NCBI GenBank assembly: GCA_018389105.1
Contig: JACATO010001456.1
Span: 62,001-126,000, forward strand
DNA: 64,000 nt
Direction of reading: 5' to 3'
Origin: Nautilus pompilius
Lineage: Eukaryota; Mollusca; Cephalopoda; Nautilida; Nautilidae
The position numbers and the translations under genes are program-made. The notes under the pieces are model-generated. The model had not been told where the DNA came from. It was given only the letters and a program-made list of their open reading frames with translations, and did no database searches. Below are positions 11,402 through 44,104 of the stretch, piece by piece; position 1 is the first letter of the stretch, and each line of letters begins with the position of its first letter.

Positions 11402-11440
<39 letters not shown>

Positions 11441-11601
11441 TTCATCTCTGCATCTCTCTCCTATTTCTCTATCTTTCTCTCATATATATAGAATATCTTT
11501 ATCTCTCTCTCTCGCATCTCTCTCTATCTCTGCATCTCTCTCATCTCTCTGTATTTTTTATCTTTCTCTTCATATATATAAATATCTTTATATCTTCTCT
11601 C

Positions 11602-11635
<34 letters not shown>

Positions 11636-11712
11636 GCATCTCTCTATCTATCTCTCGTATTTTTCTCTCTTTCTCTCATCCGATAAATATCTATCTCTCT
11701 CTCTCTCTGTCT
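10857..11712. repeat. Long imperfect (CT)n array with TATATATA interruptions
   Basis: About 850 bp of CT dinucleotides punctuated by GCATCTCT and GTATCTCT variants. A short ATATATATAAA-type segment recurs near 11224, 11345, 11485, 11573 and 11687. The spacing of roughly 90-140 bp suggests higher-order copying of a CT-plus-TA unit. The 155-223 codon frames over this region are repeat translations. Confidence 0.95.
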
Positions 11713-16124: not shown

Positions 16125-16129
16125 CGGTC

Positions 16130-16178
<49 letters not shown>

Positions 16179-16408
16179 CTCTCTCTCTCCTCTCTCCACC
16201 ATCTCTCCACCATATCTCTCTCTCTCTCTAACCGATCCGTCATATCTCTCCTCTCTCGTACGACGATATCTCTCTCTCTCTAGTACTGACGTAATCTCTC
16301 TACTCTCTCTATTCTGTACTGACGTCATATCTCTCTCTCTGTACCGACGTCATCTCTCTCTCTCTAGTGTACTGTGACGTCATCTCTCTCTCTCTAGCTA
16401 GTACCGAC

Positions 16409-16442
<34 letters not shown>
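16125..16442 (+). repeat. (CT)n-GACGTC satellite, CT on plus strand
   Basis: CT dinucleotides interrupted at intervals by TAGTACTGACGTCATC or TGTACCGACGTCATC segments; five such segments are visible from 16283 on. TGACGTCA is the palindromic cAMP-response element and appears intact in two of them. The same compound repeat, reverse complemented, occurs at 16906-17426, and again at 21608 and 43619. Confidence 0.9.
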
Positions 16443-16445
<3 letters not shown>

Positions 16446-16905
16446 AAGCTCCGGTTGAAAGAACAAAGGAAAGGAATTTTTCTGTCTTGTCCCAAATACA
16501 TTATCAGCTTCTGACGGGCTCTCTCTCTCTCTCTTTCTTAGTCGACATGGGTTCGCTTTGTTTGCTATTTTTCTTGCCCCTCCCCTGTAACCCTGCGCAA
16601 CGCAGCTGTTTTCGGCGAGATGCTCGAACTCACCGCGTGCTGGACACAAGTGGGGTAAGCGAACAAAGCAGCCGTCCGGTCTCCGGTCTCCGGTCCACCG
16701 AACGGAACGGCTCTGCTGGCGGAATGGCTCCCGCCCAGAGAAAGCCGAACTTCACAACGGTAAACATTTACGGCTGTCGACGGACGCCTCGTTGATGGTT
16801 GGGGGGGGGGTTCTCGAAGAATTATTATTATTATTTTTTAGAATAACGGATTAGTTTACTTGGCAGGACTTGGAACAACTTTGGTAAGGCGCCAGGAGGG
16901 GGAAG
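16443..16905. other. Spacer between inverted satellite arms
   Basis: About 460 bp of mostly unique sequence, including a small CT tract (16519-16538), a repeated CCGGTCTCCGGTC motif near 16677 and a G run (16801-16810). It lies between oppositely oriented copies of the GACGTC satellite. No gene seen. Confidence 0.6.
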
Positions 16906-16915
16906 GAGGGAGAGA

Positions 16916-16959
<44 letters not shown>

Positions 16960-17426
16960 GTCGGTACAGAGAGAGAGATGACGTCAGTACTAGAGAGAGA
17001 AAGAGAGAGTGATGACGTCGGTACAGAGAGATATGACGTCAGTTACTAGAGAGAGAGATGACGTCGGTACAGAGAGAGAAAGAGAGAGAGATGAAGTCGG
17101 TACAGAGAGAGAGATGACGTCGGTACAGAGAGAGATATGACGTCAGTACTAGAGAGAGAGAGATGACGTCGGTACAGAGAGAGAGATGACGTCAGTACTA
17201 GAGAGAGAAAGAGAGAGTGATGACGTCGGTACAGAGAGAGAAAGAGAGAGAGATGACGTCGGTACAGAGAGAGAGAGATGACGTCGGTACAGAGAGAAGA
17301 TATGACGTCAGTACTAGAGAGAGAGAGATGACGTCGGTACAGAGAGAGATATGACGTCAGTACTAGAGAGAGAAAGAGAGAGTGATGACGTCGGTACAGA
17401 GAGAGAGAGATGACGTCGGTACAGAG
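16906..17426 (-). repeat. (GA)n-GACGTC satellite, inverted partner
   Basis: About 18 units alternate between ATGACGTCGGTACAGAGAG and ATGACGTCAGTACTAGAGAG, with GA spacers of variable length. One unit carries GAAGTC instead of GACGTC (near 17093). About six units contain the complete TGACGTCA palindrome. Orientation is opposite to the array at 16125-16442, so the two can pair as arms of a large inverted repeat. Confidence 0.92.
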
Positions 17427-18100
17427 AGCTACGAACCCCAGTCCTATTTCATATGTTCACTGAAGATCAATTACAAAAACGTTAATCGGTGAAATTGCGA
17501 CATTTAAAGACTTTTTTTTTACTGTGTTGTAGCCCAAACTAACGTAGATTCCACCTGACATGGCTTAGCTTGAACTGGCTTCATTTTAAGGGGAGATAAC
17601 CTGTTTAAAAACAAAAAGGAGGGCTCTAATTAGTATAAACTACATAGGACAGAAATTTTTGGTCAAGTAGCAAAAACTGATTTTTAGAAGTCTTTAGCAA
17701 CCGGCGAGAAAATAGTCGACGTTATATAATCCAGATGCTGAAGCAACATTTATCATAACTCACCTGTACGTTTAATTAGGAATTACCGCTACTCCGGCCT
17801 CTCAGTAACTATTCATTAATTAGATTATAGTTTGTTTATTTCTTGAAGTTTCTTTTCCAGTCGAACGAATCAAATTGACCTCGCTGAAATTGTGGTGGGA
17901 CAAACAGACAATTTTTAAAATATTAATTACACCTGTCTCTTTCGACAGCGATAATAAGGATCAGACTTTATTTTCTGTCCCCCTGGTGGATTTATCTGTA
18001 GTCCGATCTTTGGAGCCTGTTCCAATATTTCGGTTAGACTCTGAGTCGACGAGGTGTGCACGGACACGCTAGATCCACTATCTCTCTCCCCCCCAATCGT
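17427..18100. other. Unassigned non-coding stretch
   Basis: Nothing recognisable. A 65-codon frame (17875-18072) ends just before the TATA-like box at 18101 and has no family resemblance. Confidence 0.5.
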
Positions 18101-18220
18101 TATAAAACTGGCGTGTAACCCACACGCGTGCAGTCAGAAACTTTCCTTCTCACCTGTCTAGGCGACACCCAGCGCAGCAGACAGAAGAAGCCAGGTGTTC
18201 CCGAAAGGTAACGCCAAGGT
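18101..18220 (+). promoter_or_regulatory. Candidate TATA promoter with non-coding first exon and splice donor
   Basis: TATAAAAC at 18101 is followed 31 bp later by GCAGTCAG (A at 18132), a spacing typical of TATA-to-initiator in animals. An AAG|GTAAGA splice-donor-like site lies at 18216-18224, so a short untranslated exon of about 87 nt can be drawn. No acceptor or coding exon could be identified downstream. All three signals are common by chance in 64 kb, so this is a hypothesis. Confidence 0.25.
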
Positions 18221-20110
18221 AAGATGCCAATCTTTTCTTCCATTCTTTGTTTTTACCTGTTGCCGAGTCGGTCTAAAGAACAAGAACAAAACTTACACTT
18301 CGATTATCGATTTTTTTTTTATACCCTTTTCACATATCTACCTATTCGCTAACCACTAACCCGTCACCACCCCCCTACTAGATTTATGTTCTAGTCAGTG
18401 GATAAGACACAAGAGCAGTGGTAGATCCGGGAGAGCGACGGAACACAAGCCTGATGACGCTCACCCCCGAGCAAGATTTACGCTAAATAAAAACATTACA
18501 CATGCTCGGATAATCTTGAGTTTGAAGCCCCTTTAAAACAACAGCGACGACAAAGCCGAACCCTTTTGATCCCTACAGAAACTCCTTCCCAATCTACAAG
18601 GGCGATCAGAACAGTCTGCAGTCGAGCGCACACCGATAAAACAGTCGGTGTATTCATTGCTACCCTTTTAAAAAAAAAATCGATCTAATCTTAATCTTTA
18701 TTTAAAGAGTACAAAATATTTCTCAAAAACGGAAAAGTCCGCAGTTGTACTCTTTTGACCGAATCCTACCTACAAACAAAAGCCTCCAAGTATCAATTTT
18801 CGGTCCTTTGCCGACCACGCCCCCCCCTCCTCCAGCTATCAGGGAGGCCGCATCTAACCGCCTTAATTCGATGTCTTTCAAGACCGCTCTGGACTCATGG
18901 ACATCTCGATGCCCGCTCTCAAAGTCTGGCATTTATCTCCAGTGACCTTTGACACACTGATAGCCGATTATTAATACTGTAGTGAGTTCGCACCGAACGC
19001 CGCGGTCTACCGAACAAAGCTTAAGTCCTCGCTCAGCAGTAGAGAGCCAGAACACCCGGCCGCCCACCGCTCTGTCCCCCCCCCCGAGAGAGCTGGCCAT
19101 TATATCCGTTTGTTGACTGCTCTCTCTCTCTCTCTTCGTTTTTCGCACTCGCCTTCTCCTATAATAGAAACAAAAACAGGCAGCAACAACACTTTTATTT
19201 CAGTTGTTGCGCCCTATAAAAAGGAGAGAAAAGGAAAACGATTTCCATTCTGAGCAAAGATGGCGAACAGAATTTTTGTAACGTCTTGAACAACGCGACC
19301 GACCTTCAACTTTATAGCGAGGAGAAGCAATCTTGCCGTGGGAAGTCGCCGAACGGCACGGAACCTCGTCTTCTCGATAGACGGCGCTGTAGAGTGGCTG
19401 ACACGTGACCGGTTAACCGGAGCCTAAGCAAAATTAGTATTGAAACCTGACTGTAATGGCAAAATGCGAAAGAAGTTTTTTTTTTTTTTTATTTTTTTTT
19501 ACCTGGTTACGTGTAAGAAAATATTCCCACAATTCAACGCAACGGAAGCTGATAGCCTTTCTCAGCTCTAGTATAACTCGACCTCTGGTCGTTTCTCTTT
19601 ATTTTTACAGACAAATAATGCAAGAGATGAATCGGTGCATCCGTTTTATGATGATTTACATCATGTAATTAGTCTTCGGCAGGAATTTGATGCCGTTTCG
19701 TGGTCGAGTAACCGTAGTCACCAACACTAGTCAGGAAAAGTAAACGAGTTATCGATTACCTTAGCCTAGCAGCTTCCTTCTGTTAAAAGGAATTGCTACC
19801 TGTCTGTACATTCCTTGGCGAGTCCTTGATTCATAGGCTGATGACGCGTGTGTTTGATAATTCTTCCTTGGTTTATTCTCTTTAAAATAAGAGTGTAATG
19901 GCCTATCTCGGTGTGTTTCTTCATACTTCCTTTTTAAAAAAATCATCATTATCATTAAAGAAAGAGGTAAGTAATAAGGCTCTTTATATTGCCTGCCTCT
20001 TTTATTTGTATGTCTAAACCTTAAAAAAGGGGTAAAAAAATAAATAAAACAGGGGTTTTCAGCGTCAATAGAACACTTTTTTAAAGAATAGTTTTAAAGC
20101 CAAATTGAAG
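18221..20110. other. Unassigned non-coding stretch
   Basis: Short T runs (18310, 19476-19499), a small CT tract at 19121-19135 and a C run at 19076-19085. The 60-70 codon frames overlap on both strands. No gene, RNA or mobile-element boundary is supported. Confidence 0.5.
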
Positions 20111-20114
20111 TTAT

Positions 20115-20340
20115 TGGTCTGTGGTTCGGCTGTAGACGGGCTACCGAACTGCTGTTGTTGAGAGCCCGAGTTCGAGCCTCGGTTTGGCTTGGCGTACTCC
20201 CTTCCGGTCATATTTGGTCTTGCCCGTCTTTACAATCCTGCCATCTGGGTTTCTTCTCATATCTCAATATGAAAAGTTCTAGTTGGCACTTCCGGATACG
20301 TGCGATTGTCGGCCTTGTTTTGTGGTGGTGGTGGTGATTT
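20115..20340 (+). mobile_element. Possible tRNA-derived SINE
   Basis: A good B-box match, GTTCGAGCC (20170-20178), sits in a tRNA-like context about 55 bp downstream of GGTTCGGCTGTAGACGGG. The A box is weak. The segment then continues for about 150 bp into CCATCTGGGTTTCTTCTC and ends near a (GGT)n run (20325-20334). No second copy in the window confirms it, so this rests on the B box and the tRNA-like layout. Confidence 0.4.
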
Positions 20341-21607
20341 CTATAAGCGCCGCGTGGTTCGGCTCGTTCTAGAGCATCCCCGCTTCATTATCTGTCCGCG
20401 CTGTTCAAAAAGGGACAACCTCACACTGAAAACGCGTGACGTCATTGGTGTTCTGTCATATTGCGTAGTAGCGCCATCTGTGAGTTTCCGAATGTCTCAA
20501 CGTTGAGACACACAAGAGACACACAAATCGACTTTTGTGTATACATCGTCTTGGGACAGTGGATATATTATTTTCATATTTAGGTTTCTGAGTGGGTCTG
20601 GGAGAGACTGCGGATGTGGTCGGTTCTCCAGCATTTCTTGTTACCGAGACTCGCCCGTATAAGGGTATAAAAAGGAATCTCCATTAAATTTTTCTTCTCT
20701 TTAAAAATACAGTTCCCTGAAAATATATATTGATGGTTTTCTGCTCAGTTCCTTTTACCCTGGCTGCTTGTCGCGTAAGCAGAGCAGGTAGAGGCAAATA
20801 CTTGAATTGGGCATATGTTTTGTCAGGCCGTTTACATCATCCACTCTGGTTAATGAGGCAGTGCGAATCACTTTACGCTGTAGCCAGTCTGCTTTACTTC
20901 GGCCTCAGTCTAGTAAGAGCGCAGTTCTATTGACATTATTGTATACAAACTAATTAGCGTTCTGAGGACGTTTTACAGAATCCCAGACTCGGATCTAGAT
21001 GCTGTGGATTTCGCTTAGAATTACGAGACGGCCTATTTTGCTACTCGTTTGTAGGATGATGATACAGTCTCTTACTGTGTGCTGATGTAGATGGGGTGAG
21101 TTGTCGCCAAGAACTCAACAAAAGTTCGTCTCCATCTTCCCACCCTCCCCACCCCCCAACGACCGGAGGAGACTTCTCCTGTGCTGATCCGAAGAGTTAG
21201 TCAACAAATAAAGGAAAGTGCTGAGAATCGGCTGTCGAAGGCTGGGATGAGATCTCTCTCGGCCAGTCTTTATTAGCAACGCTGATCCCCCCGATCTCAC
21301 CGTACATTAAAAAGGTGTACGCAGGTTCTCGGAGACGATTACCACCTATTCGCAGGAACTGCTTGCTCCAAAACTTTTAATGTAAGTTTTTGGAACAAGG
21401 TTGTATCATTTTTCTTAGAAAATGAGCACAGAAGTTCATAAACATTATGAAAGAAATGTATTGATCAAGGAAGATGTTTGTCCGCAGTAAGGCCATCGAG
21501 AGTACTGCTGAATAGCAAAAGGTAAAATCGCGGGAGCAGGGATGAAGGTAAACGGTCTGGCATCGCTGCTCTGCTGAACGAGACGGTTGGCAGGCAGTCT
21601 TTCTACA
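20341..21607. other. Unassigned non-coding stretch
   Basis: Contains TATAAAAAG near 20670 and overlapping short frames, none recognised. Nothing else is supported. Confidence 0.5.
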
Positions 21608-21931
21608 CGCTCTCTCTCTCTCTCTCTCCTCGCTCATCCTCTCTCTCTCTCTCTAGTGACATCATATCTCTCTGTAGTGGCATCATATCCTCTGTATGAC
21701 ATCATATCTCTCTCTGTAGTGACATCATATCTCTCTGTAGTGACATCATATCTCTGTGACGTCATCTCTCTCCGAACTGACGTCATCTCTCTCTGACGTC
21801 GGATCTTCTGTGTATTGACATCATCTCTCTCTGACTCCATCTCTCTCTCTCTCTTCTCTCTCTTTCATCTCGCTCTCTCCTCGCTCTCTCTCTCTCTCTC
21901 GCCTCTCTCTCTCGCTCATCTCGCTCCCTCT

Positions 21932-21981
<50 letters not shown>

Positions 21982-21997
21982 ATCTCTCTCTCTCTCA
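21608..21997 (+). repeat. (CT)n with TGACATCA/TGACGTCA units
   Basis: The left half (21608-21830) repeats TAGTGACATCATATCTCTCTG with variants, passing into CTGACGTCATCTCTCTC at 21756-21790. The right half (21831-21997) is nearly pure CT. The TGACATCA form is one base from the TGACGTCA of the other arrays, as expected from CpG decay (G to A). Confidence 0.9.
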
Positions 21998-22798
21998 GAC
22001 CGCTAACGATATAAATCAGGTGGAGAAAAGATTCCACTTTTAAAATACTTGGAAAGCAACTACAGAGATAATTTGCACATGTCAGGCTGTTCCGGGCGTG
22101 CACTGTTTTATGCGGAAATGACACTAGCTTTCGGAATGTTTTTAGTACAGCAGTAATAGAGAAGTAGCCTCATTAGTAGGGATCTAATCCCATCCTCAAT
22201 GACGTCAGCGTAAGGTCCGTTTTTAAATCGAGCACCCGGCGAACGACTTCTCCTGTTATCATCATTACCGGGTCCATCTGGAAATAGTTTCGATTTCCCT
22301 TTCGCAGAAGAATTCCATCCAACATTTGTTGCATGCAAAATCTGCATCAGCAAAGCGTCTGGTGATATTTCCCTTCGCGTGCCCCTTCTCCATCTCTCTG
22401 TCTTCTGAAGTTATCCGGAAAGTTGGGTTGCGACCTATACACAACGAAATCGAGAAAACTCCCCTAATTTTACATGAAACCGACACGAAACATTATCAAT
22501 ATTTTATTATTAGTAGTAGTAGCAGTAGGTAAATTCAACCGTATGTGTATATATGGCGAAAAATGTCATTTGGGTAATAAAGTAGACTTAGATTACGCAG
22601 GACAGCAACCACTTTGCTATTGAGGTAGAAGTATGTGTCTCAGACTAATTCGATTATGCTGTTCTCAAATCTGAAATCAGAATTAACCCAATACGTGAGG
22701 ATTTTTAATTACAGAAACAAATGGAAATCTAATGTTATATATTTTAGTATTGGGTACACACAGCAGGCTACGAGGGAGGATCACGTGGTTGCCTGCTT
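21998..22798. other. Unassigned non-coding stretch
   Basis: Opposite-strand frames overlap at 22108-22532 without family resemblance. A short (AGT)n-like run lies at 22508-22527. GYTQQ near 22755 may be the edge of the homology that becomes clear at 22814. Confidence 0.5.
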
Positions 22799-23596
22799 AT
22801 GTGTACACACACGTGCTTCTTGCACTCGTGGAACAACCGAGACGATGCGGATCACTATAAGATCAAAGAATGGCCATCGAGAACAGACCATACTCCTGGA
22901 AGATTCACTGTGCAGCATGCGCCACTGGTACGTCCGCTGAGAACAGTTCTTCCACCAATGCATATAAATCTGGACCCAATGAAGAGCTTTGTAAAGGAAA
23001 TGAGTGCTGAAGGTGCGGGATTTATTTATGTGAAAGGAGAATTTGGAGCGACTTTAACTGATGTCAAGTTGGAGGCTGGAATATTTGTCAGTCTACACAT
23101 TCGTGATTTACTTTCCAGTCTTTCAGTCAGGGTTACCCCACGAGAGCTGGCTGCATGGGAGGCCTTCAAACTGGTAGTCCACAGTTTCCTTGGGAACCAC
23201 AAAGCAGGCACCTGTGCCGAGTTGGTTCAAGACGCGATAAAAGCCTTTGAAGAAATGGCTCTTCGGAGGTCGCTGAAGTTGCATTTTCTTCGTTCATACT
23301 CGGATTTCTTCCCAGTAAACCTCGGCGCTGAGAGCGATGAGCGCGGTGAGAAGTTCCACCAACACATAAGGGCAAAGGAGACCCGCTATCAGGGGATATT
23401 CCACTGCAACACGATGGCGGCCGGAGACACACCACTGCTATTCACAAGCGTAATGTATACTTCATACAACGTGTTCACGTCGTTCAGGGTGTTTGAGCTT
23501 ATGGTTGGCAGGTACTGCCCAATGCGCTTATACCGAGAAATGAATTTATTTTTTGCAATTTTGCGATGTCTTGATTTATTAATAATCAATGGCTGA
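22799..23596 (+). CDS. Open, partial copy of the CxxC/DDE-like family
   Basis: A 265-codon frame with no stop. Homology to the decayed gene at 13087-14752 begins at residue 6. CFLHSWNNRDDADHYKIKEWP matches the CFLC-R...W-K-EWP block, followed by LPPMHINLDPMKSFVKEM, EAGIFVSLHIRDLLSSL, AAWEAFKLVVHSFLGNHKA and LKLHFLRSYSDFFPVNLGAE with ERGEKFHQH, ending at YQG near 23394. The last 65 residues do not align clearly. It lacks the N-terminal half with the zinc-like Cys pairs, and the second Cys of CFLC is His. It diverges strongly from the other copy, yet the homologous 190 codons are uninterrupted. It could be a young fragment, a domesticated remnant, or an exon. The start Met is simply the first in frame and may not be real. 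Confidence 0.6.
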   Translation: MCTHTCFLHSWNNRDDADHYKIKEWPSRTDHTPGRFTVQHAPLVRPLRTVLPPMHINLDPMKSFVKEMSAEGAGFIYVKGEFGATLTDVKLEAGIFVSLHIRDLLSSLSVRVTPRELAAWEAFKLVVHSFLGNHKAGTCAELVQDAIKAFEEMALRRSLKLHFLRSYSDFFPVNLGAESDERGEKFHQHIRAKETRYQGIFHCNTMAAGDTPLLFTSVMYTSYNVFTSFRVFELMVGRYCPMRLYREMNLFFAILRCLDLLIING

Positions 23597-23803
23597 AAAT
23601 GACATTTTTCTGTAACTACAAATCCTGACGGGACGGGTCAATTCCGGCTCCGGATTTGGAATCAGCTGTTTGATCTACTGGAGGACACCACACCTGCCTG
23701 CCTGCCTGTACCTGAGGGGCAGGCGAAAGGTTACCTTTTGTTGTGCAGTGTAATCAAACGGACTTGTTTTAGGGGTTTTGAGGGCACCTTCTGTCATAAC
23801 TGC

Positions 23804-23838
<35 letters not shown>

Positions 23839-23861
23839 CGACGGTGATGATGATGATGATA

Positions 23862-23904
<43 letters not shown>

Positions 23905-24110
23905 GAGAAATGTTTTACAAATTGATAAATGTATTTTAAAGGAAAGGTAACAAATATATGTATTTGAGGATTTTGTGACGACTTTTGGCACTGACGTAAC
24001 CCGGATATAAGGCGATTACGAGAAGAAGGAGGCAAGGGTCAGAGCGATTCCGCTAAGGTTTTTTCAGACCATAGATAACTCTCCCCTTCGTACAGCGCGG
24101 CCCGTGTGCC
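23597..24110. repeat. Intergenic stretch with (AAT)n-(GAT)n microsatellite
   Basis: Compound trinucleotide repeat: AAT units from 23806, a GATGAT middle (23837-23862) and more AAT units to 23903. The poly-Asn, poly-Ile and poly-Tyr frames over it are artefacts. A CCTG run occurs at 23695-23711. Confidence 0.9.
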
Positions 24111-25450
24111 TAGCTGCTGCTGCTGGCCAGATGCGGGATCAAGACGATCTGGTATCTCGTCGTCAGACCTCCCGCCTCCCGCCACCTCCCCGGTCCCATC
24201 TCTCAGCATCGCGCACGATTACAGGGGGTTGTGTGTGTAAATGTTTACAGTGGCGTCGCTCTATTTGGACGAACCCCTCCCCTCCGCGCGCCAGCCTGAG
24301 TACACAGCCCCGGGGGTCAGCTGCTCTCGAAGGCGGGGTTCGTTCGGGAAGGGTTAAAACCGTTTTTTGACGGATGGCTGAGATCTGATGAATCGAGTCA
24401 ATATCGGTCCGTTTAAGAAAGGCCGAGTCGGGGGTCCGGACTTAGCGACAGCGAGGAGTTGCTGTACCCACCCACCGACGTTTGTTCTAGAATCACCCCT
24501 CCACCCGATCTCCTCTGTGGAACAAAGGGGAGGAAGAAGAAAGCGGCTGAAGGCTAATCGGGAATCTCCGGTCGCTTTGCCGGGAAGAGAACCGAATAAG
24601 CCCGAAGCCGGTAACCCTGCCACATCTTCAGTTTCACAAACTGTCTTTCAGCTTTAAATCGGCTTTTCTCTTTATTTAACTGAAATCGGTGACAAGATTT
24701 TCGGCTAAACCACGCATCAAGTGGAAAAGCCTGGGCCCCTACAGTCGGCCGCAGAGGAGAAGGAAAACGGTCCGTGACAGCCACCCGCTGTTATCCGTGG
24801 CCATCTGTCGACTTGACGATGTTTCATCGAGATTAAATACTTGTAAAATTTCTGGCCATTTGTCTTAATTTATGTCATTTTATCTCTTCTTCCCCTTACC
24901 CCAACATCCGCTTCCACCCCCCTGAGTAGAATGGAATTAATCTTGTTTCGCTACGGCGCCTAGCAAGAGCCGAGCTTCCCAGCCCAACAACGAACGGCCG
25001 CGTCGAGCTTCTGCTTCTCTGAACTTACAAGTGTCCGTGTATACAGCGCGTGCTTGATCTGCTCGTGTATACAGCGCACCAGCCTTGATCTGCTCGTGTA
25101 TACAGCGCACCAGCTGGCAATGCTGTCGATTCGCAAGTGGTGTTCGAGTCGCTCGAGCCGAACCAAGGGAGCTTAAGGGAGGAATTTGCTACAGGGGCGC
25201 TTCGAGCAGGTCGGTCCGCGAGGCGAATTGTCCCCGGGGGGTGGGGGTGGGGCAGGGACGTTAAGGCGGGTACGACTCGTGACGGAAAATCATGGGCGAC
25301 AACTGTCGCAATTCCGCGACAGTTCTAGCAGCAACTGAAGGCGCCCGGGTACCGCACGTAGCCGCTTGGGGGTGCCAGTTGTCCGCCAGACGTCCATAGA
25401 TAACTCACCCATTTTCCACTAAGGCGCCGCCGATACAAAAATCCAGTCAA
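24111..25450. other. GC-rich, unassigned region
   Basis: Clearly richer in G+C and CpG than the sequence to its right. Pairs of 60-90 codon frames overlap on both strands (24104-24784), which reflects high GC rather than genes. Three near-identical copies of GCTCGTGTATACAGCGC lie between 25029 and 25112, a small tandem of 30-33 bp units. A hidden first exon or CpG-rich promoter is possible, but I see no element that proves it. Confidence 0.5.
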
Positions 25451-28400
25451 CAAGCAAAATGTTTTCAGAGAAAACTCTTTCATAAAGTTTGCAGTGATAT
25501 ATATATATATCTCACTGAACCATCATTTAGACACATCTGGGTCCCCTCCTGCCCGTGAAAACAACAAAATACAACTGATTATTAAAGAATCTTTACTTGA
25601 CAAATTCCTCTGAATTGTATAATCTCAATCTTGCTTCCATATACACGAAACTTCGCTGTTTTTTCAGGGACCACAGGACCCTGGCCCCGACAGACCCACG
25701 ACACCTAGTGTGCAGCCACAGTTTTTACCTTAGAGCCAAAATCTAAGCCGTGACGATGCTGTAATAACGTTTGCTATCATGCGGATCATCTAATTACAAA
25801 TGGACTTGGTGACTGGTCCACAACCATGTGAGGGCCATTTTCCAACAGAAGCAAGGATGCCTTTGTGACAGGACAGAGCATTTGTATTATTGTGTTCCAC
25901 CCATTCTCTCAGCCTCTTCTGTATGTAAACCCCCCTAAGCTTTTACCGGTCATTAGGACTGATCTCAACATGAGATAAGCTACTGTTGCTAACTCTGTTT
26001 GGCTTTGTCCTCCTCAGACCAACAGCTCCAGCAGCAGAATTCCAGCCTGCCGGTCTGAAAACGGGGCAGGGTTTTCACCTGACTCTTGCATATTTCCGTA
26101 CCCGTATCCACGGTTCATGGAGACTAAATAAATGTGTCGTATGACTCTGACACTCTCGAGGACTCGGTCCATCGTCGTTTTCCCTTCCAGCTACAGTCGG
26201 TAACAGCAGCACAATTTAAATGCTTTTCTTTCTGCAAAGGAAATTTAAAAAAAAATTTTTCCAAAACGACAGCAACAACTAAAGATAAAAGGAATAAATC
26301 TAATGGGATTCACTGTTGATGTCCTGTTTATGAAGACAAGATAGTTATTTGAGAGTTCCTTGATCACCTTATTAGATAACACATTTACCATTCCTGCTTC
26401 CATCATTATGGTCAGTTTGGAGACAAAAATGTTCTTGGTGTGCAGTTATTGGGCTGATTCTGTTCACAGCTAACATCCTTCCATCAGCTCAAGATGGTCT
26501 GGCATCTGGTCTTAGTGATGCTGGACTAACTGTTTAACCTACTGAGCCACAATGTGCATCTTCCCAATTAGATGTTACTTTACAGGATATTTAAACCTTC
26601 CTATCACTTAATAGCAATAACAGGTTTTAGTAGCATCAATACTGCATGTACTTAGTATTGGATCCAAAGCCATGTGGATGATGACATTCACTTTTCTTTC
26701 GTAGTTGTGTAGGTCAAGACCCATGCTGGAACACAACTTTGCATGATGATTATATGGTGGCATATAATTAGCTAGTAGCCTATATATTTTTTACTAAAAA
26801 ATTCCAGGAGAGAGCATACACTATAATCTTGGTAGATAAAGGGATTTCCTACAAGGGCCCAGGTGTGTAACTGCTTTCTAGGTGTTACAGTGCTTTGATG
26901 AACTTTAACAGATATTTTGTTCTTCTGTTGTTTTATTTGTTACCTATTTTGTCTAACGAGACAGAATCAATGAACAGAGCCAACCTGAGCATTGAAAGTA
27001 GCATGCTGGATGGATTTAGCAATTTAACAACTCGCTTCATTGTCATCTATTACGGACAATTTGGAAAGGAAAGAAGACTGTGCTTCCTCCTTGCTTCCTT
27101 ATCCTAGAAAATAACTTATATGTAGCATTTTTAACAGTCGGCAGTAACATTTGTGAAAAGACCTAAGGTATGATGATGACACCTCTTCTTATTTGGCCAT
27201 ATGTTGACAATTTTCTGGAATATATCTGAACAGCATTCACCCAGCTATCAATTTAAGATGGAGATGTAACTCAGCAGCAAGCATCCTTTTCTGGATGTTC
27301 TGGTTACAAGCGAAGAAGGTACTGACTACTAGTGTATACAGAGAAAAAGATACACTGGGAACTGCCTGTGATTTGACTCCATTCACCAACAAGAAGTTAA
27401 AAAGGAAGAGTTAAATGTCTTTCATCATGGTGCAGAATTATGATTGGAATAACATCATCTGATATTGCAGCACAAAGTCAAATAGATATGCGATTGAAAA
27501 GTAATAGTTAAAGATTGTAATTTCACAATCTGGACATCTGATCTGATCCAACAAGAACAGAAACGTAAAAAAAAATCCTGTAATATAAAGAACTCAGCAA
27601 ACATATCTGGAAGGAGGAAAATGTAGCTGTGATATGAAATACACTGGTGAGTCAAAAAAGGGTGATCACCAAAACCAGAATAGAAGAAGCAGAGGAGATC
27701 AGCTAGAAAGGTCATTCATTGACTGTATAATCAGCAGGTCAAGAAAACAGTATCTCGTCAGTATGTTGCAAGCTCCACCATCAAAACTATTAATTTACAG
27801 AAACATTTAAATGCCCTAGAAAGGTGCAGATAATTTGTCAGCGGCTCTATAAATGAACAAATCAACAAGACAATGCATCACTGTGAAAGTGTCAGCTGCA
27901 AATAAAATTAATAGGCTCACCTAAACCAGAGCAACAGATCTCAGGACAAACCCTGGGGGACAGTGACAGGAAATAATTGTTGGAACGTTGATTTATTAGC
28001 CGGCTTCAACAATATGGTGGAAATTGTTACAATGATTCTAATTAAAAAATTTTTGCTTTCCTCTCTGACTGCATAATGCTGAGGCATGAAATATTCCAAA
28101 CGGTTTGTTTGTGCCGAAAAAAAATATTTTGATTTAGAATAAAAGTTTTCAGCATCAGGTCATTTCTTCCACGATAATACATAGCCACTTTTTATTTAGT
28201 TTTGGGAGTTCTGAACAGCACATGCACACACACATATCTCTGTCATTCTACCTGCCCGGTTTGTAAACTCCGCATACTATGGCTCACTTTGTATATAGGC
28301 ACACGGTAACAGAGAATCCAGATGAATTATCATCATCTTTTGTTTCAGTACCTCAAATGCTCATGTGTACATAGCGTTCATGTTTGTGTTACAGCCTAAA

Positions 28401-32639: not shown

Positions 32640-32674
<35 letters not shown>

Positions 32675-34610: not shown

Positions 34611-37600
34611 TTTAAAATCTCATTTTAAATCATCACTGGATACTTTTAAAAGAATATTTTTCATTTGTTTTTGTTTTTTACAGCTCATAAATGATTCTTC
34701 GCATGACATAAGATGATCTAGTTTCATGCATAGGTCTGCTTAACTGCATCAGTGTCCAACCTATTCCGTTCATCAGTCCAGAGATCATTATTATTACACT
34801 TAAAGCTCTTTGAGGCATTACTCACAGTATTACTCAAGCAGTTTCTACTAATATTAAGAAATTGGGGGACTTAACCGTTCAGTAGACTGTAAAATGTTTT
34901 CATTAAAGTCAAACCATTTTTCAGGTTAACCAAAATTGCAATGAAAATCCACATTTGGCTTTATTTTGAAAATAACCTGATCACCATAGAAGTTTTCCTG
35001 ATAAAAATCCACTTCATCATATTTCTGTGAGGTTTTCCATTCCAACAAAATCAAGGCAACTTTACAGATCTTTAGCCATTGAAGAAAGACTCATTAAGAC
35101 CTTTAACAATCAATGCTTTATCACCTCTTGGCAAGCATCATGAATAATGTGACAGCTGCGTGGGTATCTGCGGCCATGCCATGCTCCCTTGTCTGGGTTG
35201 TTTCCAATGTGCAGCGGTTATCTCTACTCTACAAATTGGAATACAAGACAACAACAGAAGCAACATCGTAAGCGCATTAATACTATCAGTAAATGAAAGG
35301 CAAATTATTTAATTAAAGCTTAATGTTAAGTAATAGAACACAAATTGTATTCTATGGCGCAGCTCCCTGTTACCTGTTGTAACACGCTGTATTTTGGAAA
35401 TGGACTGTAAACCTTTCTTTTCCCAATTTGTTTATAACTCCATAAAAATTCAATGTTGTAAACATTATCACGACTTTCGGTATAGCATGATTCTTTAAAA
35501 ATAATATAATGGCGGGTTCTAGCTGCTACAATTTGGGAAACTCCTCGGCTATTCTCAGCTCTATAACTTTTGTGTAGTAGTGCATTTCTTCTTTAGAAAT
35601 AGAAGTACCTCACGATAATTCAGAAACGCAACATTGGTATTTTTCTTCATCTTAATTTAAACTGTTCATCTGGACACGTGCTTACTTAAGGAAAAAAACA
35701 GCATGTGTAGAGACAAACAGAAGAAAACTACACACGGCTGCAAATGAAAGATAATTAAATCCCTTGCTTCTGTAGCAATGCACCTTACAGGTATTTTAAT
35801 AGATTTTTCAAATCATATTTTTCGTACATCACCATGGATATCAAAATCATCTGTTAAGATGCTCACAGCATCTGGACTACAGAAAAGTGGATTACTTTAG
35901 CTTGTCAATTGCATGGAATAGATGTATACAACGCTTCAAAATGAAAGTAAGTGCATATTAGTGAGTTCTAAAACTGACTCATATAGATTTTTAGCCAGTA
36001 TGGTTGGCAATAATTAAATAATGCTCCCCCCTAATCGCAAGCATTGCAAACAGTGTAGCCAATTTATAATTCTCATTGATAATAGCTGAAGGAAATGCTG
36101 TCCGTATTTACAGTCTTGAGTAAGCCAGTAGTTTAAGTGGTCCACTAATTAATTTCTGGTACAATTACTTTTATGCTAGACAAACTCTCCGCATAGTCAT
36201 GTAACGAACAATGTGTGAAGCTGATGCCAAATACATGGGAAATGGCAGTTAAAAAAAGGAATAGATGTTATTTGCAAGATTAAAAAAGATTTCATCAACT
36301 ATAATATTCTGGAATTTTTAATTATATTCTAACTGATACTCGATGTCTCTTTAAAGTTCCGGAAACTGTCAAAACTCTCCTTTCAATCTAGAAAATTCCA
36401 AAGATTTCTAAGAATCTATCTTTAACTTTCCCATGTATAAAAATAGCCACCCATGCATCAGCATCTTCAGTCATTGATGAGATAATTTTTCAATAAAAAA
36501 CACACACAAACATTGATCCTGAATTTTTCAATTGTAAAAATATACAAGAAAACTGATGGACAGCACATTGCTCTGACACGTTCAAAAATTGGTCTTGCAA
36601 TAAGAACTGTTGGCAGGTTATCGGAATAATTTTGAGAAGCTGGACAGTTTTTCCCTAATAAAAGAGGCAAATTAACAATAAAGCTGTAACCAAGGGAAGG
36701 ACCGGGTTTAGAGAGGTAATAGAGGGAGAATGAGTCTTCCTCCACTGGTACGCTATCTATAATAATGGACGAAAGTTCTACCTAGAAGATATCGGATGGA
36801 CTCGTTAAAAAGAAAAAAGATATGGTAGATACGGGCTTCAGATAGAACCTTCTGTCAACAAAGAAAAAAAGGAATTGCAATTTGTTTAAGAAATGGCAAG
36901 CTTGCCAAATAGAAGATTGGAGCAAGCTAAAATTGTCCAAATAAAATTTCGCTAAATTATTTTGGTAATCACAGTACTTTGTTAGCAAGAAGAAAAGCAG
37001 GTGAAGCATTCAAAGGTAACTGTGTTTTACCAACTCAGAAGTAGCCAGAAACTATCCACGCCCAGCTTTGTTTCTCTGCTAACGGAAAAGACAAATTTAG
37101 TAATTCTGCTAAAAGAAAGCACCAATGTTTGAACTCTTTAAAAACAGTGTTTTTCAGACCTGCTAAGAAGTTCCAATCTGGTGGTAGCTTTTAATTCTTT
37201 TACAAGATAAGACTTACGTCATCAAACAACAAAAGATGCTTCTTTTGGTCCAATGACAATAAATTCGTTGGTTTTAAAACTGGGCCTGGAAATTCATTTT
37301 AAAATACAACCGAGAAACATATGGTCAGGATCTGGAAATATACCGCAAAACAAGTCGTTGAAGGAATACAGGAAAGAATTGGCAGAAGTCATCGAGGAGG
37401 CTTGAGAAAATGGTTTATTACGCAAGACATTAGCTGAAACAATGGCAGGTAGGTGGAAAGCAGTCATTAGGAACCAACGCGATACTGGTCAAAGTATTAA
37501 GAAAAAACAAGACTTCGCAACTTTAACGTTTTTGTTGTTGTTATAATTTTAAATGGCTATTTCTTTGTAAATTTTCTGTTTAATCACTAAATATAACCCA

Positions 37601-39003
37601 AACATTTTTACCTGACGTTAAGCCTTTGTGTCATAAAGACACAATTGATAATTACTAAGGGGACCAGTTAGACTGGTCCTGCTCTGTATTGCATGCTCCA
37701 AAATCTTGTTAATTATTTCTATCCTTAAGTCCTCCTGACTTTAGCGTCAGTCTTAGCAATGTAATTTACTTTTACCATCAATTAAAAGTCGTTTCTGTTA
37801 GCTTACCATTTGTTCAGGACGAATTATCTTTTATAACGAAATCCTTAAAATCCGGCGTAGTCAGTCATCTAAAGTAATCAAGAGTGTAGAAGTATGCAAA
37901 GTTTAATACTCTTCAAAGACTTTATGTAGATTCAGCTCTAATTGATTTAAATCTCCTTTTTATTACTCTAGTGAGTGATGAATGTAAACGTTTGCTGTCT
38001 CATTATATTACGAAAGTTTAAGAACCCTCTTTACATCTTAAACGAATTTAGTTTTAATTACCTTTTATAGTTAAATATCAATTTTATTTAAGTTAAATAT
38101 ATGAAACAATCTCAATTTTTACGCATTTCTTTGTTGAACAATCAGTCCTGGAATCTATTGATTCCTCCTTTAATTTAATTTTGTTTGTTGGGTAACACGG
38201 TTAATAACTTAATATGGCATCTACTTTGGTTTCCAATTAATTCATAGCGAAGGTACTCAGAAGAAATTCCGAGGTACTCATTAGTAACTATTGTACCGAA
38301 CGGCTCCCACTGTTTGGCCATGTAATCTAAATCTAAAAACAGTAGTAATGAATTTATCAATGTTTATGCAATCTTTCATTACCTCCCTTGCCTAAGTCAA
38401 ATGTTATTTATTTAACCTTAACCCTGCAAAGGAAATTTAAGACACAATTTTCAGAGAAAAGTGATTACTGATGACGTTATTCAGAAAAATCTATAATGCT
38501 CATAGGAGAAATAACATCTAAACAATGCATTAACTTTCTTGAGGATACCAGCTACTTGTGATGCCAACAGTTACGAATAGAACTCTGAAAATTCTTCAAT
38601 GTAGAAGAGCTGTGTAAATTTTCTAACTTGCATCTTAGTGATTTAAATCCTCTTCAATCATACATTTTTTCTTTCGTATTCTTTAGTCAACCTTTGTTTA
38701 CACAGGTTAGCTACCATGCTGACTCGTATCCCCCCTTTTTTCTTTACATAAATCAAATTTACCTACGAGAGTATATGATGTTAAGCACGAAGTCCTGTTT
38801 AGCTGTCTTCTTGGAGCGGGCTGTAAAGACATGGTTCAGCAGACACGTTTAAGAATAAAGGGCAGGTAACTTAGGCTTGCACGGGCCTGTCTGTATATAA
38901 ACCGGACACCTTTGCTGGACTGTCCGCCAGTTATCCGGAGGAACGTAAACTTTGTAACCGTTCTAAGTTTGCCGTCTTAAGCCTGCGCAAAACTTAAAAA
39001 AAA
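34611..39003. other. AT-rich unassigned stretch
   Basis: Continuation of the AT-rich block. No frame above 92 codons and no recognisable similarity. GGGGACCAGTTAGACTGGTCC at 37660-37680 can form a small hairpin. TATATAA at 38894 with CCAGTT about 35 bp downstream is a weak promoter-like pair just before the GA-rich satellite. Confidence 0.55.
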
Positions 39004-39091
39004 GAAGAGAGAGAGAGAGAGTGTGTGTTGTGTGGTGAAAGAGAGATACAGAGAGGAGAGAGAGAGATAACAGAGAGAGAGAGAGAGTGGT

Positions 39092-39126
<35 letters not shown>

Positions 39127-40345
39127 TGTGTGAGAGAGAGAGATTGATAGAAAAGAAATAGAGATGGTGAGAGAGAGAGTGATGTGTGTAGAACGCGCTA
39201 TATATATTAGAGAGAGAGAGAGCTACAAGAGAGAGAGAGTGTGTGAGAGAGAGAGATAGAGAGAACGCGATCGAGTGTGTGTGTGAAAAGATATACAGAG
39301 AGAGAGAGAGATACACGAAGAGATTAGATACAGAGAGAGAGCGCTCGAGAGCGCGAGATATACAGAGAGAGCGCGAGAGAGATAGAGCGAGAGAGAAGAG
39401 AGCGATAGCGGAAAGAGAGAGAGAGAATCCACAAGATAAGATATACAGAAAGAAAGAGAGAGAGAGATATACAGTGTAGAGATAGAGCAAAGAAGAGAGA
39501 GCGACTACACAGACGCGAAGAGAGCTCCTCCATCCCGAAAGCCCAGCTCTGAGATACAGAGAGAGCGAGAGTACAACCAAAACAAACCCTCGACGAGCGA
39601 TAGATAACTCCCCGAGCTCGCTCTGCCGCGACTCGAGCTCATCTCCAGCTAGATCGAGCATGCGTCGACGCAGAGAGTGCGCTACGATAACCCCCCAAGC
39701 GAGCTCTCTCACCGCCGTCCTAGCAGAGCGAATCCAGTGAGGCGCTCGAGCAAGAGAGAGAGAGATACACAGAAAGCGATTACAGGCTCGATCCTCGAAA
39801 GCTCGTGAGATACCGAGCGCGAGATCGCGAGAGAGAGAGAGAATACAGAGAGTCGTCTCGAGACGAAGAGAGAGAGTACAGAGCTCTCCCCGCGCGCGAG
39901 AGCGCTCGATACAGCGAGCGCCTCGCCGCAAGCTCTCGCTAGAGAGCTTCCCCAGCTAGCGCTCTCGCATCCCGCGCGCGAGATAGAATACAGCGAGCGA
40001 TATAGAGACATAGAGAGATACACAGAAAGAGAGATATACAAACAAAAGAGAGGAGAGGATCACAGAGAGAGAGATAGCAAGAGAGAGATAAATATACAGA
40101 GAAGGGCGAGAGAGAAGAGCGAAGAGAGAGAGAGAGAGGAGAGAGAGAGAGATCGGAGAGAGAGATAGCTACAGAGAAGAGATCTAAGAGCGAGAGCAGT
40201 ACACACCTCGAGATATATCCCAGAAATCTAGAGAGAGAGATCCAGTTCTCTAGTAGTCTCAATCGAGCCTCGTCTAGCCCCATACACCCCCCAGAGTGAG
40301 TCTCTACTTTCATCTCTAGCTCGAGAGAGATACTCCCCCGAGAGT
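39004..40345 (-). repeat. Purine-rich imperfect (GA)n satellite
   Basis: About 1.3 kb of GA dinucleotides with recurring GATACAGAGAGAGAG and GATATACAGAGAG units. A CG-enriched middle part (39340-39990) is rich in GAGCGCGAGA and CTCGAGAGCG segments. The minus-strand Ser-Leu frame of 322 codons and its neighbours are translations of the repeat, not a gene. Confidence 0.92.
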
Positions 40346-41699
40346 TATTACTTCCCTCATCTCTCTAGATATACTTCCTCTTTATTCAAATTTTCCTTTG
40401 ACAGAGAACATCTTCACCCATGAAGATTAAACCGCACATAGAACTTCTCCGTGTGCTTGTCGTGCTCGGTAATTATCTCACACTAATAAGTAGGCATATA
40501 AAGAACGTGAAAACATAATTAACATAGAAATTGCAGAGGTACTATTAATTCCTGGTAATCTGAGATGGAGAAGTGAAGAGGCGGAATAATAAGTAATTAG
40601 CGGACAATAACATGGGTTAAACCAGTCGTCTAAATCCATCCGTCTTTATTCAGTTCCATGCTTTTCCTCTCGATACTTATGTCCACATAAAAAGACAAAA
40701 GAACAAAAAACATAAAAAGGCGAAGCTTAATTACAGTTCCGGTGGAGAGGGGAAGCATAGATTTAGAAGTCGTTACCAACAAACAACCAAAAGTTAAAAC
40801 AAAGAACGTAAAACAACATGAATCACAGCCACAGTGCAAATTCCAGGTAACCAAAAGTGTCCAAGACAACACCGAGATCATTTGATCTTTCTTGCCTTTA
40901 CGTCCGTAGAGACTGAGGGACGACGGAAAGTAGCCGGGCGGAAAGGCAGCTCAACCCAGAGGCTCACCAGAGGAAGCCGGACAGCCTTCACTAGCCCCTC
41001 GACACTTACAAACGATTTTACTTCTTTTCACATCCATTTATACAAGAGCGTGGATTTTATTGTCTTGGCCATCAGCAGAATCCGAACACTTCCTGAGTGT
41101 TTTCCGCACGCTGTCAAGAATGTTTCTTCGAGACAAACAAACCATTTTTTAAAAAAAAAATAATGACGTTTCTGTTACAGGTGCTCTCTAGTTGGGAACC
41201 TGAGTTAGCAAATTTCAACGCTCTACTGGAACCAGTCAGTCGACGGGTTGCGCCACAGAACTATCAGGACACCGTTCTGATTTTTCGATAAATGCTACCG
41301 AAATTTACTATTTTTTTTTGTTATTATTATTACAAAAAATCTCGCTGCTAAATTCTAATTTAAAACTTATTATACAAGTAAATATTTTTTTTAAAAAAAT
41401 CATTTCTGTTTCTTCCCCCCACTAAAGATAATAATAATAATAATAACAGCTTTAAATTGACAATTAAGTTTATTTTCAGTTTCCTTTTCTTGGTCAAAAT
41501 CGTTATTTTGTTTCTTCTACGTTTGTCTGTTTATCTTATTTGTGTTTTTTTGCCGCTTTTCAAACTCTGTGGAATTTTTAATTTGGAAGTTTGTGTGTGA
41601 ATGCAAAAGTAGGAAATAGAATAAACAGAAATTAAATGGGAAAACGTTGTATACATTTGTGCTGAAAATTGTTCAATCTTTAACGCTATACATACAAAA

Positions 41700-41735
<36 letters not shown>

Positions 41736-43616
41736 GCATATTACAAAATACAATTAAATATATATTTAAAAAATGGGATCAAATCGACTCCTTTAGCCAT
41801 TTGTTGTTGTTGTTTTTCAATCTTTCAGTTTCAGGTTAATTCGCTCGTCATATTTAATTAAGTATTTGCAGAAGTCTTCACTCTGTAGGCATCGGGGCAG
41901 CATTTTTCACCCCCTGGAAAATCTGTTGTTTCTGTGCTAACATGGATCAATTTTCCAGTGTAAATAAAGGCTGCGATTAATCAAGAACAACAGAATCCAC
42001 TTGTATATGCCAACATCCATCGCTCGTATGGTCGACCAGCCGCCGCCATTTTTATGTCTGCAGACGGGCCAGCCATCTCCTGCACAGCAGCGCCACCTTA
42101 AGGCGGAGCTAACCAGAGCTTACTGGCGTCCTCCCGTCCGACCCCCGCAGCTCCGCGCGGTCCACTTTTGGTTCCGTCAGGAAGGTAGGAAGCTCCAGCG
42201 GCTCGAGAGAAAATAAAGAAAACAGCCTGTAATGGAGGGGTTCAGGATTCCGTTGTTTGCTAACATCTTGCCCATCCTATTCCTGTCTTCGGAAGAGAGC
42301 AGTAGATATCAATTAGGAGTTCGCCCGTCTCTGGCTTTGAGAAACGTATTAACAGCAGCCGGAATCTCTTCGTTCAGCTGATGCGGTGTAAATATTGGCA
42401 ACGAGGGAATCGTAGCTATTTTGGAAACGAATCAACGCGGCAACTTTCTCTTATTGTGCATGGAATAAAGCAGCTTCTGTTGGCACTAGACGGCTCTCCA
42501 CGATTTGCACTGTAACTAGTAATTTCTCTGATTGAAGAATTATGCCAGGACTGCCAGAAAATAGACATTTCTCTAGACGAGTGCAAAAAGCGTCAATAAC
42601 AGAAATCTGATTTTTTAAAGCTGACTATCGTCTTTATGCTTGTATTAGGCGTACTACTGCCATTGTTTGACTTTAAAGGTATGGTGATTTCTTTCTTAGG
42701 ATTAAAGTTTAATCCGATACCTTGTCTTTCGGATTATCTCTTAGGCTGACTTCATGTTTCCACTTAACTTAATACATTAATAAAATATTTTGCCTTTTGT
42801 ATCTGATGAATGCGAACTGTCAACAATATTTTTTTGCTGCACACCATTTAGGAATATTATGCGATGACAAATACCTGATTAGAATACACAAGCTCTCCGA
42901 CGCTAGTTCACTGTAATTCTTCATATCAAATTGCAGATTGCATGCGGTGATAAATAATTTACTGGACACTCATTGATATTTTAATTTTCTTTCCCTTTGG
43001 TTTCCGATCTGCTCAGAGCAATACTAAGAATAGCGGAGCTTTTTTAAAATTTAACAAAATGCCTATTTAGATGAAAAAACAACAACAACGAGGTTGTTAA
43101 AAGCTATTAAAATGTTAATCACAAATATTGATGCGAATGTTATCCTTTATTTCCGCGATATGAAATGTCCGAACTCAACATTTTAATTAAAAATAGGATA
43201 GGCGTAATTTTAAAATCAAAATAATTAAAGGGTATCCGCAACACAATGCTTCAGTAATCGATAATAATTCGTACGGATCTCACATTTCAATGTAATGCAA
43301 ATCCAACGAAAAATGTAAAAGAAACCAACTAAGAATAACTTTAAATTTTAAAACAGCCCAGTAATTTTTTGATGACGTAATACTTACTTCGATTTGGTTA
43401 TTAAACAAAATGTAAAGCAATCACGATGTAGCAGCTTCGAGAAAAAGAGAAAGTTGTAGATGCGGTTTATAAAGTTGTTACAAAAAACTGCCGACTGCGA
43501 TTACTTCCTTTTGTTTAGAATTCCGATGTTAAATAAAAAAGGTTCCATGGCATCAAGCTTGTGAATGGGTTAACCACTTGATAAAAGCCGGCTTCCTGGT
43601 GTTTAAATATACCTGT

Positions 43617-43618
<2 letters not shown>
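40346..43618. other. Unassigned non-coding stretch with small microsatellites
   Basis: Contains a perfect (TA)n of about 32 bp (41702-41733), an (ATA)n-like run at 41428-41446, and T runs at 41310 and 41385. A compact CpG-rich patch at 42001-42220 includes GCCGCCATTTT (42042-42052), the complement of the YY1-type motif AAAATGGCGGC, which is often found at promoters. A 71-codon frame there is not recognised. Confidence 0.5.
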
Positions 43619-43647
<29 letters not shown>

Positions 43648-44104
43648 AGCACTGACGTCATCTCTCTCTTCTCTCTGTCTCTAACACTGACGTCATCTCT
43701 CTCTTCTCTCTGTCTTTAGCACTGACGTCATCTCTCTCTTCTCTCTGTCTCTAGCACTGACGTCATCTCTCTCTGTCTCTAGCACTGACGTCATCTCTCT
43801 CTTCTCTCTGTCTCTAGTACCGACGTCATCTCTCTCTGTCTCCAGCACTGACGTCATCTCTCTCTTCTCTCTGTCTCTAGCACTGACGTCATCTCTCTCT
43901 TCTCTCTGTCTCTAGCACTGACGTCATCTCTCTCTTCTCTCTGTCTCTAGTACCGACGTCATCTCTCTCTGTCTCCAGCACTGACGTCATCTCTCTCTTC
44001 TCTCTGTCTCTAGTAACGACGTCATCTCTCTCTCTGTCTCTAGCACTGACGTCATCTCTCTCTTCTCTCTGTCTCTAGTACTGACGTCATCTCTCTCTCT
44101 CTCT
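43619..44104 (+). repeat. (CT)n-TGACGTCA satellite, 14 units
   Basis: Fourteen GACGTCAT cores in CT-rich spacers; eleven have the full TGACGTCA palindrome and three are CGACGTCA. Long units (about 40 bp, ending TCTTCTCTCTGTCTCTAGCAC) alternate with short ones (about 31 bp). A multi-unit block starting at TAGTACCGACGTC near 43816 recurs about 134 bp later, showing higher-order duplication. The unit is the same family as at 16.1, 16.9 and 21.6 kb. Confidence 0.95.

What the first reader, a model, noticed from the sequence alone, without database searches (positions are those of the whole stretch)
16125..44104. Dispersed satellite family built from CT dinucleotides and the cAMP-response palindrome TGACGTCA
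Four separate loci (16125-16442, 16906-17426, 21608-21997, 43619-44104) carry the same compound unit: (CT)n, then TAG(T/C)ACTGACGTCAT or GTACCGACGTCAT. The core is a perfect CREB/ATF-type site in many units. A microsatellite spreading together with a transcription-factor palindrome at several positions in 28 kb suggests either copying by conversion or transposition, or selection for the site. I know of no named family with this unit.
Basis: seen in the sequence. Interest (0 to 1): 0.75.

Follow-up and report, generated by a model that had tools for sequence, protein, structure and literature searches.

The report
CT repeats carrying a dispersed 13-mer
Many CT-repeat tracts in this large eukaryotic genome carry the same 13-letter insert although the DNA around them differs, so the insert was probably copied from tract to tract without a visible transposon; it looks more like selfish repeat turnover than a proven gene switch.

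Summary
The four arrays are real and belong to a genome-wide family. The exact 13-mer GTACTGACGTCAT occurs 27,590 times in the 728-Mb assembly, against 70 for the reversed pattern. Its first 100 hits, all on contig C1, form 24 loci; extrapolation gives about 6,600 loci.

Arrays are CT tracts holding (CT)n-GTACTGACGTCAT-(CT)n units. Flanks of 26 sampled clusters are unrelated and target-site duplications were not found. Arrays on one contig share multi-unit phrases more than arrays on different contigs (0 of 2000 permutations), sometimes inverted. Other sampled CT tracts lack the unit and carry other, mostly local, inserts.

Best reading: a minisatellite unit riding CT microsatellites, copied non-reciprocally between tracts, then expanded in place.

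Selection for the CRE is not shown. Within 35 arrays the core varies as much as the spacers (p=0.72). Genome-wide, CRE columns T5 and C11 vary about as much as A3 outside the CRE; G9 (inside) varies more and C4 (outside) most. Lone TGACGTCA sites are over-represented outside arrays, so a CRE role is not excluded.

The parts
16125..16442 (+). Array A1: CT tract with about 5 clear units, much decayed (GTACTGACGTCAT, GTACCGACGTCAT and variants)
   Evidence: 5 units within 2 mismatches of TGACGTCAT, 2 of them perfect TGACGTCA
16906..17426 (-). Array A2 (CT on the minus strand, inverted to A1): 18 units, GTACCGACGTCAT and AGTACTGACGTCAT alternating in a 165-bp higher-order repeat
   Evidence: 6 of 18 perfect TGACGTCA, 11 CGACGTCA
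21608..21997 (+). Array A3: 10 units, mostly GTAGTGACATCATA (CRE broken at the CpG), then a long CT tract without clear units
   Evidence: 2 of 10 perfect TGACGTCA
43619..44104 (+). Array A4: 14 units, CTAGCACTGACGTCAT / CTAGTACCGACGTCAT, period 35 bp with 196-bp higher-order repeat
   Evidence: 11 of 14 perfect TGACGTCA
308..451 (+). CT tract without the unit (comparison)
   Evidence: no unit within 4 mismatches of the 13-mer
10858..11707 (+). Long CT tract without the unit; carries its own AT-rich inserts (ATATATATAAATATC type), repeated locally (comparison)
39006..40239 (-). CT tracts on the minus strand without the unit (comparison)

Best explanation
A minisatellite unit that lives inside CT microsatellites. 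The unit (CT)n-GTACTGACGTCAT-(CT)n is copied non-reciprocally, with CT on both sides, from one CT tract to another: by ectopic gene conversion or template switching that uses the CT repeats as homology, or by re-insertion of excised array DNA. It is then expanded in place by slippage or unequal exchange into arrays with their own spacers and higher-order repeats. SHOWN: genome-wide dispersal, CT context and unrelated flanks in the sample, same-contig phrase sharing in both orientations, local expansion including of broken cores. INFERRED: the copying mechanism, the role of CT as landing pad, and that no function is needed.
For: 27,590 exact 13-mers against 70 for the reversed pattern, on both strands alike. 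Every one of the sampled arrays read is a CT tract with units inside it. No flank shared among 52 flanks of 26 clusters apart from the overlap between neighbours A1 and A2. No excess of direct repeats around 24 arrays (mean 5.54 against 5.27, 103 of 1000 shuffles as high). Exact phrases with two or more cores shared by 11 of 79 same-contig pairs under 300 kb, 0 of 60 farther pairs, 2 of 212 pairs on different contigs. Graded sharing over 50 loci: same contig above different contig in 0 of 2000 label permutations, 34 of 2000 without C1. Shared phrases in opposite orientation: L080/L084, L049/L089, L095/L096. Higher-order repeats in A2 and A4.
Against: Near pairs inside one contig are not more alike than far pairs (495 of 2000 permutations as high), which local copying would predict. 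Local inserts of other CT tracts have not spread in the sample, so the model does not say why this one did. No intermediate (donor and recipient pair, circle, transcript) was seen. Much of the same-contig signal comes from C1.
Confidence: 0.6

Rival explanations
1. Selection for a CREB/ATF-type binding site: arrays are kept because bZIP proteins bind TGACGTCA, as regulatory elements or as a sponge.
For: Inside 35 arrays the CRE is less diverse than the GTAC half (0.093 against 0.168; lower in 23, higher in 12; p=0.017). C4 outside the CRE has 9,867 single-substitution units against 1,949 and 1,943 for CRE columns T5 and C11. Outside CT-rich DNA 15 lone TGACGTCA sites against 2.2 expected (order 2), 30 against 8.7 on both strands (order 3).
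Against: Core diversity equals spacer diversity inside arrays (0.118 against 0.123, p=0.72). A3 outside the CRE (2,177) is as conserved as T5 and C11; G9 inside it is worse (4,192). Arrays of broken cores expand (L072: 23 inserts, none intact). Window: 21 of 47 units intact. GTAC lies at the edge of the unit where CT slippage would erode it.
Confidence: 0.15
2. A transposable element carries the array, or arrays are bare tails of 5'-truncated retroelements.
For: Known for oyster HINE elements (PMC7492417, passages) and lepidopteran RTE microsatellites (PMC2887409, passages). A few arrays have an 8-base direct repeat in the flanks (L037, L046).
Against: No shared flank among 52 flanks; direct repeats not in excess (103 of 1000). 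A carrier present at under roughly a tenth of loci would have been missed with 26 clusters.
Confidence: 0.12
3. The palindrome drives its own expansion: core-core foldbacks on single strands promote slippage, so intact palindromes multiply best.
For: 4 of 5 single-strand DNA folds show core-core pairing with z of -2.5 to -3.1.
Against: The G9A array L072 does not fold (z +1.06) yet has expanded (23 inserts, none intact). CT tracts with other inserts expand too (L055).
Confidence: 0.1

Closest known systems
Drosophila X-linked euchromatic satellites (1.688, Rsp-like)
   Same: Short satellite arrays dispersed in euchromatin; Rsp-like inserted into new places within existing 1.688 arrays (PMC7919458, passages seen), as this unit sits within CT tracts. 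That conversion between loci spreads them is recalled from Sproul et al. 2020, which is not held.
   Different: Here the host repeat is a dinucleotide microsatellite, the unit is 13 bp, and it is at an estimated several thousand loci, not mainly on one chromosome (contig-level data only).
HINE / Helentron central repeats of the Pacific oyster
   Same: Satellite-like arrays dispersed throughout a genome (PMC7492417, passages seen).
   Different: HINE arrays have left and right flanks shared between copies with subterminal inverted repeats and a palindrome; no shared flank here in 26 clusters.
Lepidopteran microsatellite families made by RTE retrotransposons
   Same: A microsatellite associated with a dispersed non-microsatellite sequence (PMC2887409, passages seen).
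   Different: There the shared sequence flanks the microsatellite on one or both sides; here it is inside, and flanks are unrelated.
Interrupted or compound microsatellites (general knowledge, recalled)
   Same: An interruption inside a dinucleotide repeat is amplified with it, as for the other inserts of L055 and the window's 10.8-kb tract.
   Different: Those inserts were each seen at one sampled locus; this 13-mer is at an estimated several thousand.

Membership tests
Helentron-carried satellites (HINE) | Left and right flanks shared between copies | tested here: not met
   52 flanks of 26 clusters (up to 400 bp each), no match except the overlap of A1 and A2
RTE-type microsatellite families | Element-derived sequence shared on at least one side of the microsatellite | tested here: not met
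   Same test; three visible arrays (L033, L034, L041) were left out by the CT threshold
RTE-type microsatellite families | Target-site duplications | tested here: not met
   24 arrays: mean best direct repeat 5.54 against 5.27 in shuffled pairings, 103 of 1000 as high
Dispersed euchromatic satellite (1.688 / Rsp-like type) | Short arrays at many loci with unrelated flanks | tested here: met
Dispersed euchromatic satellite (1.688 / Rsp-like type) | Arrays resemble their neighbours on the chromosome | tested here: inconclusive
   Same contig above different contig (0 of 2000; 34 of 2000 without C1); no gradient inside contigs (495 of 2000)
CREB/ATF regulatory element (CRE) | Palindrome TGACGTCA present | tested here: met
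   Intact in 21 of 47 window units; 13-mer with intact CRE 27,590 times
CREB/ATF regulatory element (CRE) | Core conserved above its surroundings | tested here: inconclusive
   Core against spacer p=0.72, CRE against GTAC p=0.017; genome-wide A3 2,177, C4 9,867 outside; T5 1,949, G9 4,192, C11 1,943 inside
CREB/ATF regulatory element (CRE) | Bound by bZIP proteins, close to transcription starts | not testable with these tools
Interrupted or compound microsatellite | Insert amplified together with the dinucleotide tract | tested here: met

The most novel reading that the evidence does not exclude
The 13-mer is not a passive passenger: bZIP binding at its CRE half (or its palindromic fold) makes the tract that carries it a preferred donor or recipient of copying, so a transcription-factor site has turned CT microsatellites into a self-spreading family and seeded some 27,000 potential binding sites in one genome.
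Probability: 0.15. Interest if true: 0.8.

Novelty: new variant of a known kind. Interest (0 to 1): 0.5.

Why it matters
Dispersed satellites are often traced to transposons through shared flanks. Here a 13-bp unit has reached an estimated several thousand CT tracts with no carrier visible in the sample. That makes the question how tandem repeats move between loci testable: CT tracts are the recipients, the unit is a tag, and phrase sharing can reveal donors. The family would also confound CRE motif scans and microsatellite markers in this organism.

Tried and rejected
Local duplication or assembly artefact: rejected by the genome-wide counts and unrelated flanks.

Relatives elsewhere: IMG/VR gave 0 hits for two CT-flanked patterns. 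A 15-mer without CT flanks gave 23 stretches; none is in a CT tract, so I take them as chance. GTDB genomes gave 0. These collections hold viruses and prokaryotes, so absence there says little about relatives of this organism. Literal sequence searches of the held paper library found no paper; TGACGTCA with microsatellite and satellite DNA gave 0. Nothing beyond that library was searched.

No Rfam family at gathering threshold and no tRNA in the window. Near-far gradient within contigs: not significant. Nearest-neighbour clustering on C1: not found (mean distance 32.8 kb against 22.3 kb at random), although 18 of 24 loci lie in the first 333 kb.

Sampling limits: L032-L051 were chosen because they hold the exact 13-mer TACTGACGTCATC. 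L072-L077, L097 and L098 came from the list of G9 variants. L072-L077 were left out, L097 and L098 were not; all were offered. One search examined 36 clusters: 26 used, 3 visible arrays (L033, L034, L041) dropped by the CT threshold, 7 entries (5 sites, two counted on both strands) outside CT. Searches left out loci with a single core. Only 5 of 13 columns were counted genome-wide. The tool calls its counts lower bounds; the control is the reversed pattern.
Full report
Read on the CT strand, each is a CT tract interrupted by a unit: TAGTACTGACGTCAT, GTACCGACGTCAT or a relative. GACGTCAT occurs 39 times in the window against 1.46 expected, and TGACGTCA in each array exceeds the mean of 500 dinucleotide shuffles many-fold. 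The perfect palindrome is in 21 of 47 scored units. Array 3 is mostly TGACATCA. Array 2 is inverted with respect to the others.

The family is genome-wide. The window is part of a 727.6-Mb assembly of 2,558 contigs. My impression of an animal, perhaps a mollusc, is recalled and untested. TACTGACGTCATC occurs 23,304 times against 62 for the reversed pattern, and GTACTGACGTCAT 27,590 times (13,759 and 13,831 on the two strands) against 70. The first 100 hits, all on C1, form 24 loci of 4.2 exact units on average. None of the 24 is of mixed orientation, and orientation changes between loci as at random. Dividing the genome total by that mean gives about 6,600 loci, an extrapolation from one contig.

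Anatomy. Twenty stretches chosen from the hits show arrays of 1 to about 40 cores inside CT tracts, with the consensus (CT)n-GTACTGACGTCAT-(CT)n and spacers that differ from array to array. Of 36 clusters of near-matches, 26 had CT context by threshold, 3 more (L033, L034, L041) are CT arrays by eye, and 7 entries are single near-matches in ordinary DNA. In 19 stretches of 2.5 kb taken at fixed contig steps no array was found, and the 6 CT segments there (4 stretches) lack the unit. CT segments without the unit also lie in 8 of the hit-chosen stretches. They carry other inserts: CATCATC runs, CCTCCCTCC, or local ones such as TTCTCCAATTGTTTCCA in L055 and the AT-rich insert at window 10.8 kb. 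So amplification of inserts inside CT tracts is not special to this unit. Dispersal of one insert over very many tracts is, as far as this small sample shows.

How it spreads. Flanks of up to 400 bp on both sides of 26 clusters share nothing but the overlap between A1 and A2. Direct repeats around 24 arrays are not longer than in shuffled pairings (5.54 against 5.27, 103 of 1000), though L037 and L046 have 8-base ones. In the first 27 arrays, exact phrases spanning two or more cores were shared by 11 of 79 same-contig pairs under 300 kb, 0 of 60 farther pairs and 2 of 212 pairs on different contigs. With 50 loci and a graded measure, same-contig pairs (means 0.063, 0.106 and 0.058 for under 100, 100-300 and over 300 kb) again exceed different-contig pairs (0.022): 0 of 2000 label permutations as high, 34 of 2000 without C1. 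Inside contigs nearer pairs are not more alike (495 of 2000), which speaks against a simple distance gradient. Shared phrases occur in opposite orientations, e.g. L080/L084, L049/L089 and L095/L096. Higher-order repeats of 165 bp (A2) and 196 bp (A4) show recent expansion in place. I infer non-reciprocal copying between CT tracts, with CT as the homology, followed by slippage or unequal exchange.

Is the CRE selected? The evidence is mixed and mostly negative. Genome-wide single-substitution counts (reversed control in brackets), against 27,590 intact units: A3 2,177 (74), C4 9,867 (123), T5 1,949 (91), G9 4,192 (84), C11 1,943 (116). T5 and C11 inside the CRE match A3 outside it; G9, in the CpG, is more variable, and C4 just outside is by far the most variable. 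These are units, not independent events, since variants multiply in arrays. In 35 arrays CRE diversity (0.093) is below GTAC diversity (0.168; lower in 23, higher in 12, p=0.017), but the core as a whole equals the spacers (0.118 against 0.123, p=0.72); the spacer measure uses only equal-length collapsed spacers and is rough. Between higher-order copies of A2 and A4 there are 6 substitutions in 285 core positions and 8 in 316 spacer positions. In a sample chosen on intact units, events per column were 4.75 for GTAC and 5.1 for the CRE. Three of 50 loci have no intact CRE (L072, L075, L076, all picked from the variant list), and L072 has 23 inserts. Erosion by CT slippage at the edge of the unit would explain the weaker GTAC half.

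Against that, outside CT-rich DNA (275 kb) there are 15 lone TGACGTCA sites where 2.2 are expected (order 2). Counted on both strands this is 30 against 4.5 (order 2) or 8.7 (order 3), while its 24 one-off neighbours number 176 against 131 or 181. TCACGTGA is more enriched still (46 against 5.0 or 6.4), as is GCGCGCGC. Most of this DNA was fetched around arrays; the 44 kb of fixed-step stretches alone hold 3 TGACGTCA and 0 TCACGTGA. A genome-wide use of CRE-like sites is therefore possible, and the unit could have begun as such a site beside a CT tract: two of the window's four lone sites lie about 50 bp from one. That is a lead, not a result.

Folding. Of 5 single-strand pieces, 4 pair core to core (z -2.5 to -3.1); the G9A array L072 does not (+1.06) but expanded all the same. 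So the palindrome is not needed for expansion.

Comparison. Oyster HINE elements (PMC7492417) and lepidopteran RTE microsatellite families (PMC2887409) have shared flanks (passages seen), a feature not met here. Drosophila Rsp-like satellites inserted inside 1.688 arrays (PMC7919458, passages seen) are nearest in behaviour. Literal searches for the unit in the held library found no paper. Verdict: a real, genome-wide and unusual dispersed satellite, not categorically new, and a good tag for studying how tandem repeats move between loci.

Noticed in passing
window 254, 16070, 20437, 22200; L032-L070: Lone TGACGTCA (and TCACGTGA) palindromes outside CT arrays are several times more frequent than expected from base composition; two of the window's four lie about 50 bp from CT tracts.
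   Followed up: partly
L072, L038, L039, L042, L075; window A3: The G9A variant (TGACATCAT) is often followed by CATCATC runs inside the unit, as if one microsatellite had given birth to another.
   Followed up: no
window 8733-9799: Separate 31-bp satellite, 34 copies, consensus ATATTGTTCTCTTGTCAGGGTTGTATAAGTC, with higher-order periods.
   Followed up: no
window 45249-53490 and 56305-60607: Several diverged fragments of non-LTR retroelements (endonuclease, reverse transcriptase, zf-RVT matches, two of them below Pfam's cut-off) about 65-67% alike to each other.
   Followed up: no
window 5519-5801 and 63075-63395; 7072-7272 and 7443-7646: Two further interspersed repeat pairs (74-78% and 88% identical).
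   Followed up: no
C5:620538-621335, C17:447966-448818, C19:95376-95986 of the own genome: Large arrays of the C4A variant GTAATGACGTCAT, which extends the palindrome to ATGACGTCAT (positions listed).
   Followed up: no
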